From Ignavibacteria bacterium (GTDB taxonomy: Bacteria; Bacteroidota; Ignavibacteria; Ignavibacteriales; Ignavibacteriaceae): DNA of 64,000 nucleotides. Below, one piece after another: positions 53,578 to 63,621 of this stretch (its first letter is position 1; every line of letters begins with the position of its first letter). Both the position numbers and the translations under genes were made by a program. The DNA lies in contig JAFLBV010000001.1 of NCBI GenBank assembly GCA_017302895.1, positions 1,302,001 to 1,366,000 on the forward strand. Reading direction: 5' to 3'. The notes below the pieces were generated by a model. It did no database searches and was not told the origin of the DNA. It saw only the letters and a program-made list of their open reading frames with translations.

Positions 53578-56448
53578 ATGTTTGGATATTCCAACAATAT
53601 TCATAATTTAGCAGAATCTAAATTATTGAATTTTATTATGAACGAAGCTAAAACGCGCCAGGATATAATTGACCATCGGCTCGCCAAAGCCGGTTGGAAT
53701 GTAAACAATCCTGCCCAAGTCAAAAGAGAACTGGATATAAAGATCAAAAGCCCGGATTCCGTACAGGAAGATGGGCATCTGTATGACGGGCATCGTTATG
53801 CTGACTATGCTCTTCTCGGTGATGACGGTTATCCTTTGGCGGTTGTTGAAGCAAAAAAATCCTCCCGTGATGCAAGAATTGGCCAGGAACAGGCTAAGCA
53901 ATACGCAAAAAACATTCAGGCTCAACTAAAAGGTAGACTTCCGTTCGTTTTTTACACTAACGGCAATGACATCTATTTCTGGGATACCGAGAAATACCCC
54001 CCACGCAAAGTTTATGGATTCCCCACAAAAAAAGACCTCGAAAGGTTGATGTTCCTGCGGGAACATGAAAAACCTCTCTCCAAAGAACTTATCAATACTG
54101 AGATCAGTGGCAGACCATATCAAATTGAGGCGATCCGTTCTGTATTTGAAGGAATCGACCACGCAAGAAGGAAATTTCTTTTGGTGATGGCAACAGGTAC
54201 CGGAAAAACCCGTACCTGTGTGTCGATGATTGATGTTCTCATGAGGACAAACAGGGTGCAAAGAGTTTTGTTTCTGGTTGACAGAATTGCCCTGATGAAT
54301 CAGGCACTTGATGCGTTCAGGGAATATCTCCCCAATGCTCCCCTTTGGCCTCAGAGGGGTGAAACCAAATTTGTCACAAACCGGAGAGTTTATGTGACAA
54401 CCTACCAGACAATGCTCAATATCATTGAAGATGACGATTACAGGCTGAGTCCCTTCTTTTTTGATTTGATTGTTGCCGACGAAAGTCACCGGTCGATTTA
54501 CAATGTTTACAAAAACATATTCGATTATTTTGATGCCCTTCAAACTGGTTTAACGGCCACCCCAAAAGATGCTCTTGAACGGAATACATTTAAACTTTTT
54601 CAGTGTGAAGACGGACTCCCGACATTTGCGTATTCCTATGAAGAGGCATTAAAAAACAATCCTCCCTATCTCTGCGATTTTGAGGTTCTGAAAATCAGAA
54701 CGAGATTCTTAAAAGAGGGGATCAGAAAAGAGACAATTTCGATTGAGGATCAAAAGCGATTACTCAAAGCCGGGAAAGAACCCGAGGAAATTAATTTCGA
54801 AGGTACCGAAATCGAGAAAAGTGTCACAAATCTTGGCACCAATACCCTGATTGTCAGGGAATTTATGGAAGAGTGTATAAAGGACGAAAGTGGAGTTCTT
54901 CCGGGGAAAACCATATTTTTTGCAATGACAATCGCACATGCCCAAAGACTTCGGGAAGTTTTTGATGACCTGTTTCCCGAGTATAAAGGGGAGATCGCAA
55001 AAGTAATTGTATCGGAGGACCCAAAGGTTTACGGCAAGGGGGGATTACTCGATCAATTTGTGAATAAAAACTTCCCCCGCATCGCAATCAGTGTTGATAT
55101 GCTCGACACGGGTCTTGATGTCAGGGAACTGGTCAATCTTGTTTTTGCTAAACCTGTCTTTTCATACACCAAATTCTGGCAGATGATCGGACGGGGAACC
55201 CGCCTTCTCGAACCAAAAAAGATAAAACCCTGGTGTAAAACAAAAGATAAATTTTTGATAATCGACTGCTGGGGAAACTTTGACTATTTCATGATTGAAC
55301 CCGGCGGGGTAACTGAGAAACCATCCATTCCGTTACCCGTCAGACTGTTTTTAACCCGGCTTCAAAAACTGACTTTGGCTCAGTCGTTAAAAAAGACCCC
55401 GGTCATTGAAGATTGCATAAACAGGCTGAAAGCTGAAATAGCCTCCTTGCCCCAAAACAATGTGGTGATCCTTGATGCAAAAACGAAACTTGACCGGATC
55501 GATGATAATTACTGGTCAGACCTGACAAAAGAAAAAACGGAGTTCCTGCAGAATGAGATAGCTCCTCTGATGCGTACCCGTTCGGGTGAAGATTTTGATG
55601 CAATGTATTTCGAATTGAAGGTGCTGTTATACTCAATCGCAAAAATTGATGAAAAGCAGGAAAAGAAGTTAAGGGAGAACCTGCTTTTGAGAACTTCAAA
55701 TGCAATAATCGAAATGGTTGCTGATCTTCCTCTGAATGTAAATGTGGTGGCAAAAGAGAAGGATTTGATTAATTACGTCCTCACAGGCGGTTATCTGCAA
55801 AAAGGGGGTGAGCCTGAGTTAAACAACCTTGTTGAAAAACTGGGTCCCCTGATGAAGTTGCGTGACCCCGTAAAACAAAGCCAGGTGTCACTCGATCTGG
55901 AGGATGTTACACATGAGAAAGGATACATCAAGTTTGGTGCCGGACACGAAAGAATCACCGTGCAAAAATACCGTGACCGTGTGGAAGCTCTCATCAAAAA
56001 CCTTGAACAAAAAAATGTCGTGCTTCGCAAAATCAAACTTGGTGAAAGCATAACGGATGAAGAATTAAACCAGCTCGCTGCCACCTTACAGGAAAATGAT
56101 CCGTATCCCACTGAGGAAAATTTACAAAAGGCGTATGAAGCACGAAAAGTTAAATTTCTCGACCTGATAAAATATATCATGGGTGTCAGCGGACTGGTTA
56201 CTTTCCCGCAAAAGGTAACAACCGCTTTTGACGGATTTATAGCCGAACACAATAATTTAACAACAAAACAGATTCAGTTTATTCAGACTCTTCAATCATT
56301 TATCATTGAAAATGGAGAACTAAGTAAAAAGGATCTGGTTTCCGAACCATTCACAAAATTCCACAATAACGGCTTTTTGGGGCTGTTTGATCATCAACTG
56401 CAACAGGAAATTTTACAATTAACGGACAGAATTTTAAACTATGCTTAA
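53578..56448 (+). CDS. hsdR: Type I restriction enzyme R subunit HsdR (EcoEI type)
   Basis: Up to 956 residues; the motor and nuclease of a type I system. Nuclease domain ~55-130 (YADYALLGDDGYPLAVVEAKKSSRDARIGQEQAKQYA: D...(E)AKK core of PD-(D/E)XK). Helicase: Walker A ATGTGKT (~205-212), DESH at ~300, LTATP, then MIGRGTRLLEP late in motif VI. C-terminal EcoEI_R_C-like domain follows with GFIAEHNNLTTKQIQFIQTL (~890). The first ATG (53578) is used here, but homologues begin near MNEAKTRQDIIDHRL, so ATG 53638 is the likelier start. Overlaps hsdM by 8 nt. Confidence 0.94.
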   Translation: MFGYSNNIHNLAESKLLNFIMNEAKTRQDIIDHRLAKAGWNVNNPAQVKRELDIKIKSPDSVQEDGHLYDGHRYADYALLGDDGYPLAVVEAKKSSRDARIGQEQAKQYAKNIQAQLKGRLPFVFYTNGNDIYFWDTEKYPPRKVYGFPTKKDLERLMFLREHEKPLSKELINTEISGRPYQIEAIRSVFEGIDHARRKFLLVMATGTGKTRTCVSMIDVLMRTNRVQRVLFLVDRIALMNQALDAFREYLPNAPLWPQRGETKFVTNRRVYVTTYQTMLNIIEDDDYRLSPFFFDLIVADESHRSIYNVYKNIFDYFDALQTGLTATPKDALERNTFKLFQCEDGLPTFAYSYEEALKNNPPYLCDFEVLKIRTRFLKEGIRKETISIEDQKRLLKAGKEPEEINFEGTEIEKSVTNLGTNTLIVREFMEECIKDESGVLPGKTIFFAMTIAHAQRLREVFDDLFPEYKGEIAKVIVSEDPKVYGKGGLLDQFVNKNFPRIAISVDMLDTGLDVRELVNLVFAKPVFSYTKFWQMIGRGTRLLEPKKIKPWCKTKDKFLIIDCWGNFDYFMIEPGGVTEKPSIPLPVRLFLTRLQKLTLAQSLKKTPVIEDCINRLKAEIASLPQNNVVILDAKTKLDRIDDNYWSDLTKEKTEFLQNEIAPLMRTRSGEDFDAMYFELKVLLYSIAKIDEKQEKKLRENLLLRTSNAIIEMVADLPLNVNVVAKEKDLINYVLTGGYLQKGGEPELNNLVEKLGPLMKLRDPVKQSQVSLDLEDVTHEKGYIKFGAGHERITVQKYRDRVEALIKNLEQKNVVLRKIKLGESITDEELNQLAATLQENDPYPTEENLQKAYEARKVKFLDLIKYIMGVSGLVTFPQKVTTAFDGFIAEHNNLTTKQIQFIQTLQSFIIENGELSKKDLVSEPFTKFHNNGFLGLFDHQLQQEILQLTDRILNYA

Positions 56449-57958
56449 TCAGACTCTAAAATCATCGATCAACCGTTTATGGGATAAACTTTGGAGCGGG
56501 GGAATTGCAAATCCTCTTACCGCAATTGAACAGATTTCATACCTGTTGTTTATGAAACGACTGGACGAACTTGATCTTAAAAAGAAACAGGATTCGGATT
56601 TTACGGGAGAATCTTATCAATCCCTTTTTGAAGGGGAAAAAGAGGTTCTGAGGTGGAGCCATTTTCGACAACTGGAGGGGGGAGAGATGCGCGATCACAT
56701 TCAAAATAATGTCTTTCCGTTCCTCAAAAAACTGGGGAAAGATGATGCTCCATTTGCAAAATATATGACCAATGCTGTTTTTATCATTTCGAAACCCTCT
56801 CTCCTGGTTGAAGCTGTATCAATTATTGATGAAATTTTTGAAGAGATTTTAAAGCAACAGATGGAAGGGCAGGGCTTTCAGGATACACAGGGCGACCTCT
56901 ACGAGTTTTTACTTTCCGAAATCACTACTGCGGGTAAACTGGGGCAGTTCAGAACCCCAAGGCATATTATTCAACTTATGTGTGAACTGGTAAACCCCAA
57001 GCTGGGTGACACCATCTGTGACCCCGCAGCGGGAACCGCCGGCTTTTTACTGGGGGCATATCAACATATCATCACACAATTTACGAGTGATCAGAATCGA
57101 CAGGTTGATGAAAACGGCCTGGTGCGTGGACTGCTTGGCGACAAACTCACGGATGAAAGACAGTGGACTCATCTGAAGGAGAAGACTTTTTACGGATATG
57201 ATGCCGATGAAAGCATGGTTCGCATCGCTTTAATGAATCTTATGATGCATGGCATCTCAAGTCCGAATATCGAGCAGAAGGATACACTTTCCAAATACTA
57301 CAATGAGGACGGGATTTATGATGTTATCATGGCAAATCCGCCGTTTAAGGGGAGCATTGACAAGGGAGATATCAACGATTCCCTGTCGCTGCAAACCACA
57401 AAAACGGAGCTGCTGTTTTTGAACAGAATCATCAATTCCTTAAAAACCGGAGGCAGGGCAGGGGTAATTGTTCCTGACGGCGTTTTGTTCGGTTCGAGCA
57501 ATGCCCACAAGCAGGCGAGAAAAATGCTCCTTGATGACTGTGAACTTCAGGGGATTATTTCGATGCCAAGTGGAATATTTAAGCCCTATGCGGGAGTGAG
57601 TACCGCCATTTTGGTTTTCGTTAAAGGCGGAACTACCGAAAAAGTGTGGTTTTACGATATGCAGGCTGACGGTTACAGTCTTGATGACAAAAGGAATAAA
57701 ATTGATGCCAACGATCTGAGCGATATCGTTACAAAATGGAATTCAAGAACGGAACAAACAGAGAATGACAGAGGCAGTAAATTCTTCCATGTCGAAAAAA
57801 CCGAAATTGAAAATAACGACCTCGATTTAAGCATCAACCGGTATAAGGTGGCAGAACATAAAGAGGTTGTGTATCAAGACCCGAAGGAAATCTTGGCTAA
57901 GATTGAGGCTCTTGAGGAGGAGATTGTTCTGGGGATTAATGAGTTGAAGGGGTTATGA
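56441..57958 (+). CDS. hsdM: Type I DNA methyltransferase M subunit HsdM
   Basis: A 505-residue N6-adenine methylase. An N-terminal helical domain (LNQTLKSSINRLWDKLWSGGIANP) leads to the SAM-binding DPAAGTAGFLLGAY (~195) and the catalytic DVIMANPPFKGS (NPPF at 299-302). GGRAGVIVPDGVLFGSSNAHKQARKMLLDD follows. With HsdS it modifies the host site; with HsdR it completes restriction. Overlaps hsdR (8 nt) and hsdS (4 nt), so all three are one transcript. Confidence 0.96.
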   Translation: MLNQTLKSSINRLWDKLWSGGIANPLTAIEQISYLLFMKRLDELDLKKKQDSDFTGESYQSLFEGEKEVLRWSHFRQLEGGEMRDHIQNNVFPFLKKLGKDDAPFAKYMTNAVFIISKPSLLVEAVSIIDEIFEEILKQQMEGQGFQDTQGDLYEFLLSEITTAGKLGQFRTPRHIIQLMCELVNPKLGDTICDPAAGTAGFLLGAYQHIITQFTSDQNRQVDENGLVRGLLGDKLTDERQWTHLKEKTFYGYDADESMVRIALMNLMMHGISSPNIEQKDTLSKYYNEDGIYDVIMANPPFKGSIDKGDINDSLSLQTTKTELLFLNRIINSLKTGGRAGVIVPDGVLFGSSNAHKQARKMLLDDCELQGIISMPSGIFKPYAGVSTAILVFVKGGTTEKVWFYDMQADGYSLDDKRNKIDANDLSDIVTKWNSRTEQTENDRGSKFFHVEKTEIENNDLDLSINRYKVAEHKEVVYQDPKEILAKIEALEEEIVLGINELKGL

Positions 57959-59127
57959 GCTCAGATAGTCCAATAAAAAAAATAGGCGATATTTGTAAAG
58001 TGTTTAGCGGTGGAACGCCTCGCCGGGGTATTGATGGATATTATGGTGGTGATGTCCCATGGGCAAAAATTGGGGATATTGAAAATGCCGAGGGTGGTTA
58101 TCTTTTCACCACTAAAGAATCAATAACCCAAGATGGTCTTAAATCCATCAACAACAAAATATTTAAAAAGGACACAATCTTTTTGGCACTCTATGGCTCT
58201 GTTGGTAAGACTGCGATTGCTGGTAGAGAGATGTCAACGAATCAAGCAATTTTGGGTCTTATTCCGAAAAATCCGGAAGTGCTATACTTTAAGTATTTAA
58301 AGTATTGGCTAGATTATTCAAAATCTGAACTTATCGGCTTAGCACGAGGAGTGGCTCTTCAAAATATATCTGCCACGATTGTGAAAGAATACCCGATTCC
58401 TCTCCCAACAATCGAAGAACAACACCGCATTGTAAAAATTCTTGATCTGGCTCAATCACTCATTGAAAAACGAAAACAAGCAATTTCATATTTGGATGAC
58501 TATATAAAAGCAGTTTTCCTGGATATGTTTGGGGATCCGGTCAGTAATCCGAAGGGGTGGGAGAAAGTTAAATTTGAGGATATTTGCAAAATTGAGAAAG
58601 AACAAATATCTCCTATTAAAATTAAAAATAGTGACTATTATATTGGACTGGAAGATATTGAAAAGGAAACTGGAAGGATTATCAAAACTTCTTCATCCAA
58701 TTCTGCTTTATTAAAAAGTACAAAATTCGTATTCACAAACGAAAATGTGCTTTATGGAAAACTTCGTCCTTATTTGAATAAAGTAGCACTACCCCAGCGT
58801 GAAGGCATTTGCTCAACAGATATTTTGCCGTTAATGCCTATAAAAGATAAATCACAAAAGCATTTTATTTGTTATTTGATTCGGTCCGATTATTTCGTAT
58901 CACAAATGATAAAATGTACGGTAGGGGCAAATTTGCCTAGAGTAAATTCAAGGAGCTTGAATGAAACTTCTGTTTACTCTCCACCAATTGCATTGCAAAG
59001 TCAATTTTCAGAAATAGTTCAAAATACCGAATCGTTAAAACAAAAAATGCAAACCCAATTAAGAGAACTGCAAAACAATTTTCAGGCACAGCTTCAGAGG
59101 TCGTTTAGGGGGGGAGTAGAAGTTTAG
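57955..59127 (+). CDS. hsdS: Type I specificity subunit HsdS
   Basis: A 390-residue protein with two target recognition domains. TRD1 (1-~165: KIGDICKVFSGGTPRRGIDGYYGG, ARGVALQNISATIVKEYPIPLPTIEEQHRIV) is followed by the conserved helix and linker (EKRKQAISYLDDYIKAVFLDMFGDP), then TRD2 (~195-350, FEDICKIEKEQISPIKIKNSDYYIGLEDIE) and a final helix. The two TRDs define a bipartite site that cannot be read from sequence. Its start overlaps the hsdM stop by 4 nt. Slightly more AT-rich than hsdM, as usual for exchangeable TRDs. Confidence 0.94.
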   Translation: MSSDSPIKKIGDICKVFSGGTPRRGIDGYYGGDVPWAKIGDIENAEGGYLFTTKESITQDGLKSINNKIFKKDTIFLALYGSVGKTAIAGREMSTNQAILGLIPKNPEVLYFKYLKYWLDYSKSELIGLARGVALQNISATIVKEYPIPLPTIEEQHRIVKILDLAQSLIEKRKQAISYLDDYIKAVFLDMFGDPVSNPKGWEKVKFEDICKIEKEQISPIKIKNSDYYIGLEDIEKETGRIIKTSSSNSALLKSTKFVFTNENVLYGKLRPYLNKVALPQREGICSTDILPLMPIKDKSQKHFICYLIRSDYFVSQMIKCTVGANLPRVNSRSLNETSVYSPPIALQSQFSEIVQNTESLKQKMQTQLRELQNNFQAQLQRSFRGGVEV

Positions 59128-59427: not shown

Positions 59428-62400
59428 ATGAGCATTAACTGGCACAATATCAGACCAATAAATGGTGATCAAAAAGAAGGATTCGAAGAACTAGTTTCCC
59501 AGTTAGCTCGAAAAGAAGATATTTCGAATAAGAGACATTACTTCAGAATAGGTAAACCTGATGCTGGAGTTGAATGCCTATGGATTCTGAATGATGACAC
59601 AGAATGGGCTTGGCAGGCAAAATATTTCACATCCAGTCTTGATACTAGCCAATGGAAACAACTTGATGAATCTGTGAAAACAGTGATGAGTAAGCACCCA
59701 AAAGTTGTTAAATATATAATCGCAATCCCAATAGATCCTCCCGATGCGAGAGTTGAAGGAAGAAAATCTCTCCTTCAGAAATGGGATGAACATATTGTAA
59801 AATGGCAAGGATGGGCAAAATTGCGAAATCTTACCATTGAATTCATTCCTTGGTGGCATTCTGATTTCATTCAAAGATTTCAAAAACAGGAGAATGCGGG
59901 TTTTTTAAAATTTTGGTTTGATAAAGAATACTTTAATGACGAATGGTTTGAAGATAAACTTGAAATATCGATCGCTAACTTGGGAAATCGTTATACATCA
60001 GAGATAAACTTTGAATTAGATATTGTTAAAATATTTGATGGTATAGCTCGTGACAATAAATTTTATGCACAATTACACAAACAATTCGATGATCTCCTAA
60101 TCAGTCTCAAAAAAATTAAATCAGGATATGAGGATAGTGAATTATCAAAGCAATTTAGTACTTTGACTCGTTTTTGTGATTCTCTTAACCAGGAATATAT
60201 AAATATAATTTCGATTAAAGAGAACCAGTACGATTTTGGAATATTGGTATCTAAGATGAAAGAAGTAACATCAATTCTAAATAGTATTGATAAAATAATT
60301 GATGAGTTAATTCCTAAATTAAATCAAAGATCTAAAGAAAGTCTTGAGTATTTGAAATACAATTTAAGAAATGCTTATTCGCAAATTGTAAATTTTGAGT
60401 CATTTATAGTCAGCAAAACAGTAGGCTTATTTAATAAACCATACCTATTGTTAGACGGAGAGGCTGGTGTAGGTAAATCGCATCTACTAGCAGACATAGC
60501 CAATATTCGTCAAAAAGAAGGGAAATATTCAATTTTACTTCTTGGCCAACATTTCAATCGAGAGGAAAATCCGCAGAAACAAATATTAGATCAGTTGGAT
60601 TTAAATTGTAGATTTGACGAATTTCTTGAGGCGTTAAATTGTAAGGCCCAAATTTCAAGGACTAGATTAATGATAATAATTGATGCTATCAATGAGGGGG
60701 CTGGTAGAAAGTTTTGGCCGGATAACTTGAACGGCTTCATTAAATCGATTTCAAAGTACAGCTGGTTAGGATTGGTTATTTCAATTCGTTCATCCTATCT
60801 TAAATTATTTGAAGATAATATTAAAAATTTATCTAGGGAACTTATACAATTTACTCATTTTGGATTCAGGAATGTTGAGTATGAAGCATCAAAATTATTC
60901 TTCAAGAATTACAACATTGAATTGCCAAGTGTTCCACTTTTGCATCCTGAATTTCAGAATCCTCTCTTTTTAAAAATTTTCTGCGAGGGACTTAATAAGG
61001 CGGGGTTCACAAAAATTCCAGACGGGATTGACGGTATTACTCAAGTTTTTGATTTTTTTATCTCCAGTATTAATAAAAAGCTTTCTTTGCCCAAAAATTT
61101 TAATTATTTACAGGAATTAAATCTAGTTAAAAAAATTATACATGAAATAACAAAGTATAAATCGATTCACAATTTATTTTATGTGCCACTCGATACTGCA
61201 GTTGAAATTATAACTGAAATCCAAAGAAAATATAATATTAATGGGAATTTGGCTGAAGAGTTGATTGCCGAAGGGATTTTTTCAAAAAATCTATTTTGGA
61301 AAGAAAAAGGAAGTTATGAAGAAGGTATATATATATCGTATGAGCGCTTTGATGATCATTTAGTCGTTTCTGAAATCTTAGAAAAAGTATCAAATGAAAA
61401 AATTAAGGAGTGTTTTGAATCTCAGGGTGCATTATTTAACTTTATAAAAGATGAATATGCGATTAATCAAAATAGAGGAATAATCGAAGCACTCTCAATT
61501 CAATTACCTGAAAAGTACGGAATTGAATTATTTGAGTTATTAAGAGAGAATGATAATTATGAAATAGCTGAAGCATTTGTTAGCAGCCTACTTTGGAGGA
61601 AGAACAAATCATTGATTGAGGAGAGAGTAGTTGACTATATAAATAATGTAGTTCTAAACTTTGAGGGGACGCATGATTATTATTGGGATACAATAATTGC
61701 AGTGGCTATCAATCCTAAACATTGCTTCAATGCAAATAAAACTCATGCGGTGCTTAGTCGTTATTCATTAGCTGGACGCGACGAATGGTGGACCCAATTA
61801 ATACATAGCTGGTATAATGATGATTGGTCAGTAAAGAGATTGATAGATTGGGCTTGGTCGTCAGAAGGTAAAAATCACATCTCTGATGAATCCATCGAAT
61901 TGGCCGCAACAATGCTCGCTTGGTTTCTAACAAGTTCCAATCGTAAACTAAGGGATTCAGCGACAAAAGCCCTCATTTGTATTCTGGAAAATAGAATTCA
62001 TATCGTGATCAATTTGCTGAAAAAATTTGCGGATGTCAATGATCCGTATGTCAATGAGCGTATCTATGCTTCTGCATATGGTTGTATCTTACGAAGTGAA
62101 ACAAGGCAAAACTTTAAAGAATTAAGTGAGTATATATACGAAACAATTTTCCATCAAGAGAAAGTATATCCACATGTGTTAATGAGAGATTATGCCCGAA
62201 ACATCATAGAATATACTTTAACCTTGGGAATAGAGTTGAATATTGATGTAAAATTGATTCAGCCCCCGTATAAAAGTAATTTCCCACCTATACCTCAGGA
62301 TATTGAAATAGAGAAATACGAAATTGATCATAATAGTTCTAACTTCAGAGATTATTATTGGAGTATCAATAAAATACTTTATTCAATGGAAGTTGAACAT

Positions 62401-63621
62401 TCAAGAAATGGTAAAAATGTGCATTACGGAGATTTTGGAAGGTATGTTTTTCAGAGTGCATTTAATTATTGGGAGGAACTTAATATCTCCGATCTGAAAA
62501 ACATTGCCATCAAAAAGATTTTTGATATGGGTTATTGTGCAGAGAAACATGGTTCGTTTGATCACAAAATAGGATATCGCGACCGTCATTACCATGAAGC
62601 AGAAAGAATTGGGAAAAAATACCAGTGGATTGCTTTGCATGAGCTTTTGGCACAGGTATCAGATAATTACCCAATGAAGGTACCTTGGTTATGGGGTGAT
62701 GAGATAGAATTGATAGATTATTGTGGTCCATGGGAACCTTTCTCAAGAGATATTGATCCTTCAACAATCGGTAAATACTCTGTAACCAATTTATTGAATA
62801 TCCAACCAAAAATTGAATATAACAATTGGAGCACAGATAATCATCAATGGTTGAAAAGCATTTCGGATATACCGGATCCAAAATTATTGATAGAAAATAG
62901 CTCAAAAGAATGGGTAATGCTTGAGGGTCATTATGATTTAACTGAAGAGAGAATATTGGGTCATGAATACTATTCAATTCCGCAGAAAAGTTTTTGGTAT
63001 ATTATCAAGAGCTATCTTGTCCCTGCAGACCAGTATGAAAATGTCTGCAAATGGTTGCTTGACAAAAACTTTATGGGAAGATGGATGCCAGAATCGCAGG
63101 ATAGATATGAAATATTTAACAGGGAATATTACTGGTCTCCGGCGCATCAGTTTTTCAAAAAAGAATATTACGGCGGAGAACATGTAAGCAAATTATATGA
63201 TAGAGAAAATGACAAAGAAATCGGAGATATTATCGTCACTACCGAATCGTATTTATGGGAAGCTGAATATGATTTTTCAAAAGAAAAAGTGTTACGATTA
63301 TTAAAGCCATGTGGTCGGATTGTTGAATTACTTAAGCTTTCATATAAAATCAATGAAAGTTATATGTATTCTGAAAATGGAGAATTGGTATGCTTTGACA
63401 ACTCAGAGGGGGATTCGGGTGATTCGTGCTTGTACTTTAGAAAATCTGCAATAATGGAATTTTTAGAGAGGCATGATTATAGAATAATCTGGACTGTTTT
63501 ATGTGAGAAAAACATTATGGGTGGGGATAATCGTAATAATTATGGGAAGTGGCCTACTGGGTCAGGAATATATACAATAATAGATGATGAAATAATAGGT
63601 AACATAAATCAGTTTAGTTAA
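59428..63621 (+). CDS. Avs-like STAND NTPase with N-terminal PD-(D/E)XK nuclease
   Basis: A 1,397-residue antiviral-type ATPase. N-terminal nuclease (1-~160): GKPDAGVE with Asp45 and Glu49, and WAWQAKYF with Gln63/Lys65, the D...(E/Q)xK core. A helical linker precedes the P-loop domain with Walker A DGEAGVGKS (Lys350) and Walker B LMIIIDAINEG (Asp419), and an RSSYL sensor-like turn near 455. The rest is helical repeats to ~950, then a unique C-terminal region rich in Trp/Tyr (YDLTEERILGHEYY, CKWLLDKNFMGRWMP). This is the build of Avs (AVAST) sensors. Start is ATG 59428 with AGAGGA upstream; an earlier ATG (59410) adds six residues. It follows hsdS by 300 nt. Confidence 0.85.
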   Translation: MSINWHNIRPINGDQKEGFEELVSQLARKEDISNKRHYFRIGKPDAGVECLWILNDDTEWAWQAKYFTSSLDTSQWKQLDESVKTVMSKHPKVVKYIIAIPIDPPDARVEGRKSLLQKWDEHIVKWQGWAKLRNLTIEFIPWWHSDFIQRFQKQENAGFLKFWFDKEYFNDEWFEDKLEISIANLGNRYTSEINFELDIVKIFDGIARDNKFYAQLHKQFDDLLISLKKIKSGYEDSELSKQFSTLTRFCDSLNQEYINIISIKENQYDFGILVSKMKEVTSILNSIDKIIDELIPKLNQRSKESLEYLKYNLRNAYSQIVNFESFIVSKTVGLFNKPYLLLDGEAGVGKSHLLADIANIRQKEGKYSILLLGQHFNREENPQKQILDQLDLNCRFDEFLEALNCKAQISRTRLMIIIDAINEGAGRKFWPDNLNGFIKSISKYSWLGLVISIRSSYLKLFEDNIKNLSRELIQFTHFGFRNVEYEASKLFFKNYNIELPSVPLLHPEFQNPLFLKIFCEGLNKAGFTKIPDGIDGITQVFDFFISSINKKLSLPKNFNYLQELNLVKKIIHEITKYKSIHNLFYVPLDTAVEIITEIQRKYNINGNLAEELIAEGIFSKNLFWKEKGSYEEGIYISYERFDDHLVVSEILEKVSNEKIKECFESQGALFNFIKDEYAINQNRGIIEALSIQLPEKYGIELFELLRENDNYEIAEAFVSSLLWRKNKSLIEERVVDYINNVVLNFEGTHDYYWDTIIAVAINPKHCFNANKTHAVLSRYSLAGRDEWWTQLIHSWYNDDWSVKRLIDWAWSSEGKNHISDESIELAATMLAWFLTSSNRKLRDSATKALICILENRIHIVINLLKKFADVNDPYVNERIYASAYGCILRSETRQNFKELSEYIYETIFHQEKVYPHVLMRDYARNIIEYTLTLGIELNIDVKLIQPPYKSNFPPIPQDIEIEKYEIDHNSSNFRDYYWSINKILYSMEVEHSRNGKNVHYGDFGRYVFQSAFNYWEELNISDLKNIAIKKIFDMGYCAEKHGSFDHKIGYRDRHYHEAERIGKKYQWIALHELLAQVSDNYPMKVPWLWGDEIELIDYCGPWEPFSRDIDPSTIGKYSVTNLLNIQPKIEYNNWSTDNHQWLKSISDIPDPKLLIENSSKEWVMLEGHYDLTEERILGHEYYSIPQKSFWYIIKSYLVPADQYENVCKWLLDKNFMGRWMPESQDRYEIFNREYYWSPAHQFFKKEYYGGEHVSKLYDRENDKEIGDIIVTTESYLWEAEYDFSKEKVLRLLKPCGRIVELLKLSYKINESYMYSENGELVCFDNSEGDSGDSCLYFRKSAIMEFLERHDYRIIWTVLCEKNIMGGDNRNNYGKWPTGSGIYTIIDDEIIGNINQFS

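What the first reader, a model, noticed from the sequence alone, without database searches (positions are those of the whole stretch)
59428..63621. Large Avs-like STAND NTPase with its own nuclease domain beside a type I restriction system
D45...E49...Q63xK65 nuclease, Walker A/B ATPase and a long C-terminal sensor region are directly visible. Avs proteins recognise phage proteins such as terminase or portal. The C-terminal ~450 residues are Trp/Tyr-rich and I cannot assign them to a known Avs type, so the sensed molecule may be new.
Basis: partly seen in the sequence, partly recalled or inferred. Interest (0 to 1): 0.75.

Follow-up and report, generated by a model that had tools for sequence, protein, structure and literature searches.

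The report
An ordinary Avs2 anti-phage protein
This gene encodes a bacterial alarm protein of the already described Avs2 type, which probably detects a phage protein and then cuts DNA to stop the infection; its sensing end is recognisably the known Avs2 one and not a new kind.

Summary
The open frame 59428-63621 (+) is real: 1,397 aa with a PD-(D/E)XK-like nuclease end (E20, D45, E49, Q63-x-K65), Walker A (K350), Walker B (D419) and a Trp/Tyr-richer C-terminus, 300 bases downstream of a complete hsdR-hsdM-hsdS set. All six PADLOC families hit by the whole protein are Avs2, one over residues 1-1396. The NCBIfam Avs2 equivalog scores 1304 bits (cut-off 1000). The C-terminal 394 residues alone hit only Avs2 models (best 323 bits) and the solved Avs2 chain 9o4e (262 bits). 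The C-terminus is no more diverged from E. coli Avs2 than the ATPase part (38% versus 37% identity), so a swapped sensor is unlikely. The one variation is known effector modularity: this protein has the nuclease end, as 18 of 20 compared relatives do, while E. coli and Vibrio Avs2 have a different N-terminus on the same core. The gene sits at a site of gain and loss between an FAD-oxidase gene and yceD-plsX and is absent from three congeners. New member of a known kind; low interest.

The parts
59428..63621 (+). avs2 gene, 1,397 aa
   Evidence: PADLOC Avs2 families to 1459 bits, NCBIfam NF041813 1304 bits (cut-off 1000)
59428..59925 (+). N-terminal PD-(D/E)XK-like nuclease effector (residues 1-166): E20, D45, E49, Q63, K65
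   Evidence: E20/E49/Q63/K65 kept in 18 of 20 compared relatives, D45 in 16 of 20; Avs2 models to 180 bits, Avs4 model weakly (E 0.0007); predicted helix-strand-strand-strand-helix-strand order; weak top fold match Avs4 8dgf (E 0.017)
59929..60435 (+). linker, mostly helical (about residues 168-336)
   Evidence: parts of low confidence; 9o4e match starts at residue 168
60436..62307 (+). STAND/NACHT ATPase with Walker A 344-351 and Walker B ending at D419, and the following region (residues 337-960)
   Evidence: NACHT, AAA_22 and AAA_16 below cut-off; K350 and D419 kept in 20 of 20 relatives; Avs2 models to 930 bits
62506..63618 (+). C-terminal sensor region (residues 1027-1397), Avs2 type
   Evidence: 262 bits to Avs2 9o4e; Avs2 models to 323 bits; 359 bits to NF041813 positions 937-1317
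53578..56448 (+). hsdR, type I restriction subunit (neighbour)
56441..57958 (+). hsdM, type I methylase subunit (neighbour)
57955..59127 (+). hsdS, type I specificity subunit (neighbour)

Best explanation
It is a single-gene Avs2 anti-phage system. The C-terminal region binds a phage protein (inferred; most likely the large terminase subunit, possibly another protein as reported for other Avs2). Binding drives ATP-dependent oligomerisation of the STAND ATPase (inferred from Avs2 literature), which brings the N-terminal PD-(D/E)XK nuclease domains together to cut phage and host DNA and abort the infection (inferred). Shown here: family membership over the whole length, intact ATPase and nuclease motifs, the adjacent R-M set, and presence/absence variation in the genus. 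Not shown: activity, trigger or oligomer.
For: Only Avs2 models among PADLOC families for the whole protein, to 1459 bits, one end to end. NCBIfam Avs2 equivalog over its cut-off. The C-terminus alone matches Avs2 models and solved Avs2 9o4e. Motif conservation. The core tree groups it with E. coli Avs2 and nuclease-bearing relatives (support 99/99, midpoint root). Passages in PMC12931631, PMC12724215 and PMC13141931 report Avs1-3 sensing of large terminase, Ksap1 for a Klebsiella Avs2, and a portal protein for an Alcaligenes Avs2.
Against: Only about 37-43% identity to E. coli Avs2 over the core and C-terminus, so the trigger could differ. The N-terminus differs from E. coli Avs2. NCBIfam model positions 837-936 have no counterpart here. 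The C-terminal structure model failed (mean pLDDT 45.7) and the nuclease fold match is weak.
Confidence: 0.9

Rival explanations
1. An Avs protein of a new type whose C-terminus senses a new kind of molecule.
For: The C-terminus is Trp/Tyr-enriched. The trigger of this protein is unknown, and Avs2 relatives are reported to sense several phage proteins.
Against: C-terminal residues match only Avs2 models (6 of 6 families) and Avs2 9o4e at 262 bits. Identity to E. coli Avs2 in the C-terminus (37.7%) is not lower than in the ATPase part (37.2%). The aromatic enrichment is shared by relatives.
Confidence: 0.05
2. An accessory of the type I R-M system rather than a stand-alone defence gene, working together with HsdRMS.
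For: Same strand, 300 bases downstream of hsdS.
Against: Congener G003 has the same hsdR-hsdM at 94% DNA identity without Avs2. Four annotated Avs2 loci on plasmids or the E. coli chromosome (L010, L012, L048, L049) show no annotated R-M genes in the stretches read, up to about 4 kb on each side.
Confidence: 0.03
3. A decayed or inactive Avs2.
For: It lacks the segment that matches NCBIfam model positions 837-936.
Against: The frame is intact and all motifs are kept. The same short form occurs in relatives L015-L019, L011, L004, L013, L021, L024 and L026, and PADLOC model PDLC02162 aligns end to end.
Confidence: 0.02

Closest known systems
Avs2 (AVAST type 2), NCBIfam NF041813, PADLOC PDLC02161-02166
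   Same: ATPase core and C-terminal sensor region over the whole length; four of the six PADLOC models also cover the nuclease end from residues 1-4
   Different: Shorter by about 100 positions between core and C-terminus than the NCBIfam model
E. coli Avs2 (WP_044687640, 1484 aa; the 9o4e chain is also 1484 aa)
   Same: Residues 168-1037 and 1030-1392 align at 39% and 38% identity
   Different: The E. coli N-terminal about 165 residues are unrelated by sequence and lack the nuclease motif
Avs4 (8dgf)
   Same: Weak similarity of the N-terminal nuclease: top fold match E 0.017, PADLOC Avs4 E 0.0007
   Different: No Avs4 match for the core or C-terminus

Membership tests
Avs2 | Whole-protein score over the curated NCBIfam Avs2 equivalog cut-off | tested here: met
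   1304 bits, cut-off 1000
Avs2 | STAND ATPase with Walker A and B | tested here: met
   K350 and D419 kept in 20 of 20 relatives
Avs2 | Avs2-type C-terminal sensor region | tested here: met
Avs2 | N-terminal effector | tested here: met
   Nuclease-type end matched by four of six PADLOC Avs2 models; differs from the E. coli Avs2 end
Avs2 | Activation by phage large terminase subunit | not testable with these tools
   Reported for Avs1-3 in passages read
Avs4 | Avs4 core and portal sensor | tested here: not met
   Only the N-terminus hits an Avs4 model, weakly

The most novel reading that the evidence does not exclude
The nuclease-bearing, short Avs2 lineage to which this protein belongs (known here from Bacteroidota, Moraxella, Bisgaardia and others) senses a phage protein other than the large terminase, and the E. 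coli/Vibrio Avs2 lineage exchanged this nuclease for a different effector on the same sensor.
Probability: 0.15. Interest if true: 0.4.

Novelty: new member of a known kind. Interest (0 to 1): 0.15.

Why it matters
It adds a member to a described immune family. The modest point of use is that the solved E. coli-type Avs2 and this branch share sensor and ATPase but not the effector end, so the pair could serve to test effector exchange on one sensor.

Tried and rejected
New sensor type: rejected by C-terminal searches. R-M accessory: made unlikely by the congener with R-M but no Avs2 and by loci without annotated R-M nearby. A second defence gene downstream: the 1,411-aa ORF at L001:5762-9997 has a T9SS sorting domain and BNR repeats, and the genes next to avs2 are an FGE-sulfatase-like gene and an IS21-type pair (the istB-like protein also hits PADLOC DrmD, E 2e-46, taken as a shared IstB-like ATPase because Pfam IstB_IS21 scores 265 bits). 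The Pfam CAMP_factor hit (E 0.00074, below its cut-off, residues 218-300) lies in the helical linker and is taken as chance. Structure of the C-terminus: the model is unusable (pLDDT 45.7), so no fold search was made with it. Literature: neither the primary Avs papers nor a 9o4e paper was found in the library (searches; not held); of four papers only passages were read. That Avs2 was first described by Gao and colleagues, and details of the Klebsiella Avs2 work beyond those passages, are recalled.

Rows: of the loci that matched by blastp, 19 were aligned (20 relatives with E. coli Avs2 added, from then on). Dropped were the window's own copies L003 and L008, fragments L009 and L040-L045, L023 (same scores as L012), and distant L028, L030, L031 and L033. 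L020 was not among the matches (no frame of 800 aa).

Full report
The frame 59428-63621 (+) is open for 1,397 aa, with the nuclease residues D45, E49, Q63 and K65, Walker A at 344-351 and Walker B ending at D419. Upstream lie hsdR, hsdM and hsdS on the same strand.

The identity is Avs2. Whole-protein PADLOC search gives six families, all Avs2, the best 1459 bits; PDLC02162 covers residues 1-1396 of 1397 in one stretch. NCBIfam NF041813 (Avs2, equivalog) gives 1304 bits, cut-off 1000. The only significant solved structure is 9o4e, named Avs2, over residues 168-976 and 1027-1391.

Residues 1004-1397 hit Avs2 models only, 323 bits at best, and 9o4e at E 1e-76. Compared with E. coli Avs2, identity is 37.2% for residues 168-520, 43.0% for 521-960 and 37.7% for 1027-1397. 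The Trp/Tyr content (11.6%) is above chance for this protein (25 of 2000 shuffles reach it), but relatives share the trend.

The effector end deserves one remark. In 18 of 20 compared relatives the N-terminus is of the same nuclease type (E20, E49, Q63 and K65 kept in all 18; D45 in 16, the other two being the most distant rows L027 and L029). E. coli and Vibrio Avs2 share a different N-terminus without the motif. In the tree of residues 168-1397 these two form a clade (100/100) inside an 11-row group (99/99) with the window protein and nuclease-bearing relatives; the root is a midpoint and some branches are long, so the direction of exchange is not shown. Effector exchange on STAND proteins is described (passage of PMC9122126). 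The nuclease-end model (mean pLDDT 69.5, seven sequences) has a PD-(D/E)XK-like element order, and its best fold match is Avs4 8dgf, weakly (E 0.017, none at 0.001 or better).

Context. Over the family's cut-off there are matches in 3 of 59 relatives, the window's genome included, and in 4 of 395 genomes of the phylum sample, again including it. The three congeners held (G001-G003) have none; two of them are drafts of 82% and 90% completeness. In G003 the same site between the FAD-oxidase gene and yceD-plsX holds hsdR-hsdM at 94% DNA identity and no Avs2; in G002 the two flanking genes are about 0.6 kb apart, and in G001 about 1.9 kb apart with one ORF between them. Downstream of avs2 lie an FGE-sulfatase-like gene and an IS21-type istB/istA pair. 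The site is thus one of gain and loss.

Mechanism. From passages of papers on Avs proteins, the likely chain is phage-protein binding by the C-terminus, ATP-dependent oligomerisation and nuclease activation; large terminase is the most likely trigger, but Ksap1 and a portal protein are reported for other Avs2. None of this was tested for the window protein.

Noticed in passing
L001:12697-12982 (window genome, about 12 kb downstream of the window's end): A tandem array of about 5.4 copies of a 53-base unit (92% matches) shortly before yceD; congener G003 holds a related array.
   Followed up: no
L001:5762-9997: A 1,411-aa secreted-type protein with BNR repeats, an internal 126-base tandem repeat and a T9SS sorting domain; the search with it gave 140-158 matches per genome in the genus, those listed mostly to its C-terminal part.
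   Followed up: partly
L066:2091-6290 (congener G003): Two Reg_prop beta-propeller proteins sit between the FAD-oxidase gene and hsdR, where the window's genome has no room for them.
   Followed up: partly
L048 and L049: E. coli avs2 lies beside phage tail genes, the pinE recombinase and an integrase, on a chromosome and on a phage-like plasmid.
   Followed up: no
L013 (Haloplanus plasmid): An archaeal plasmid protein annotated as HNH endonuclease is a nuclease-type Avs2 relative (28% identity, 98% covered).
   Followed up: partly
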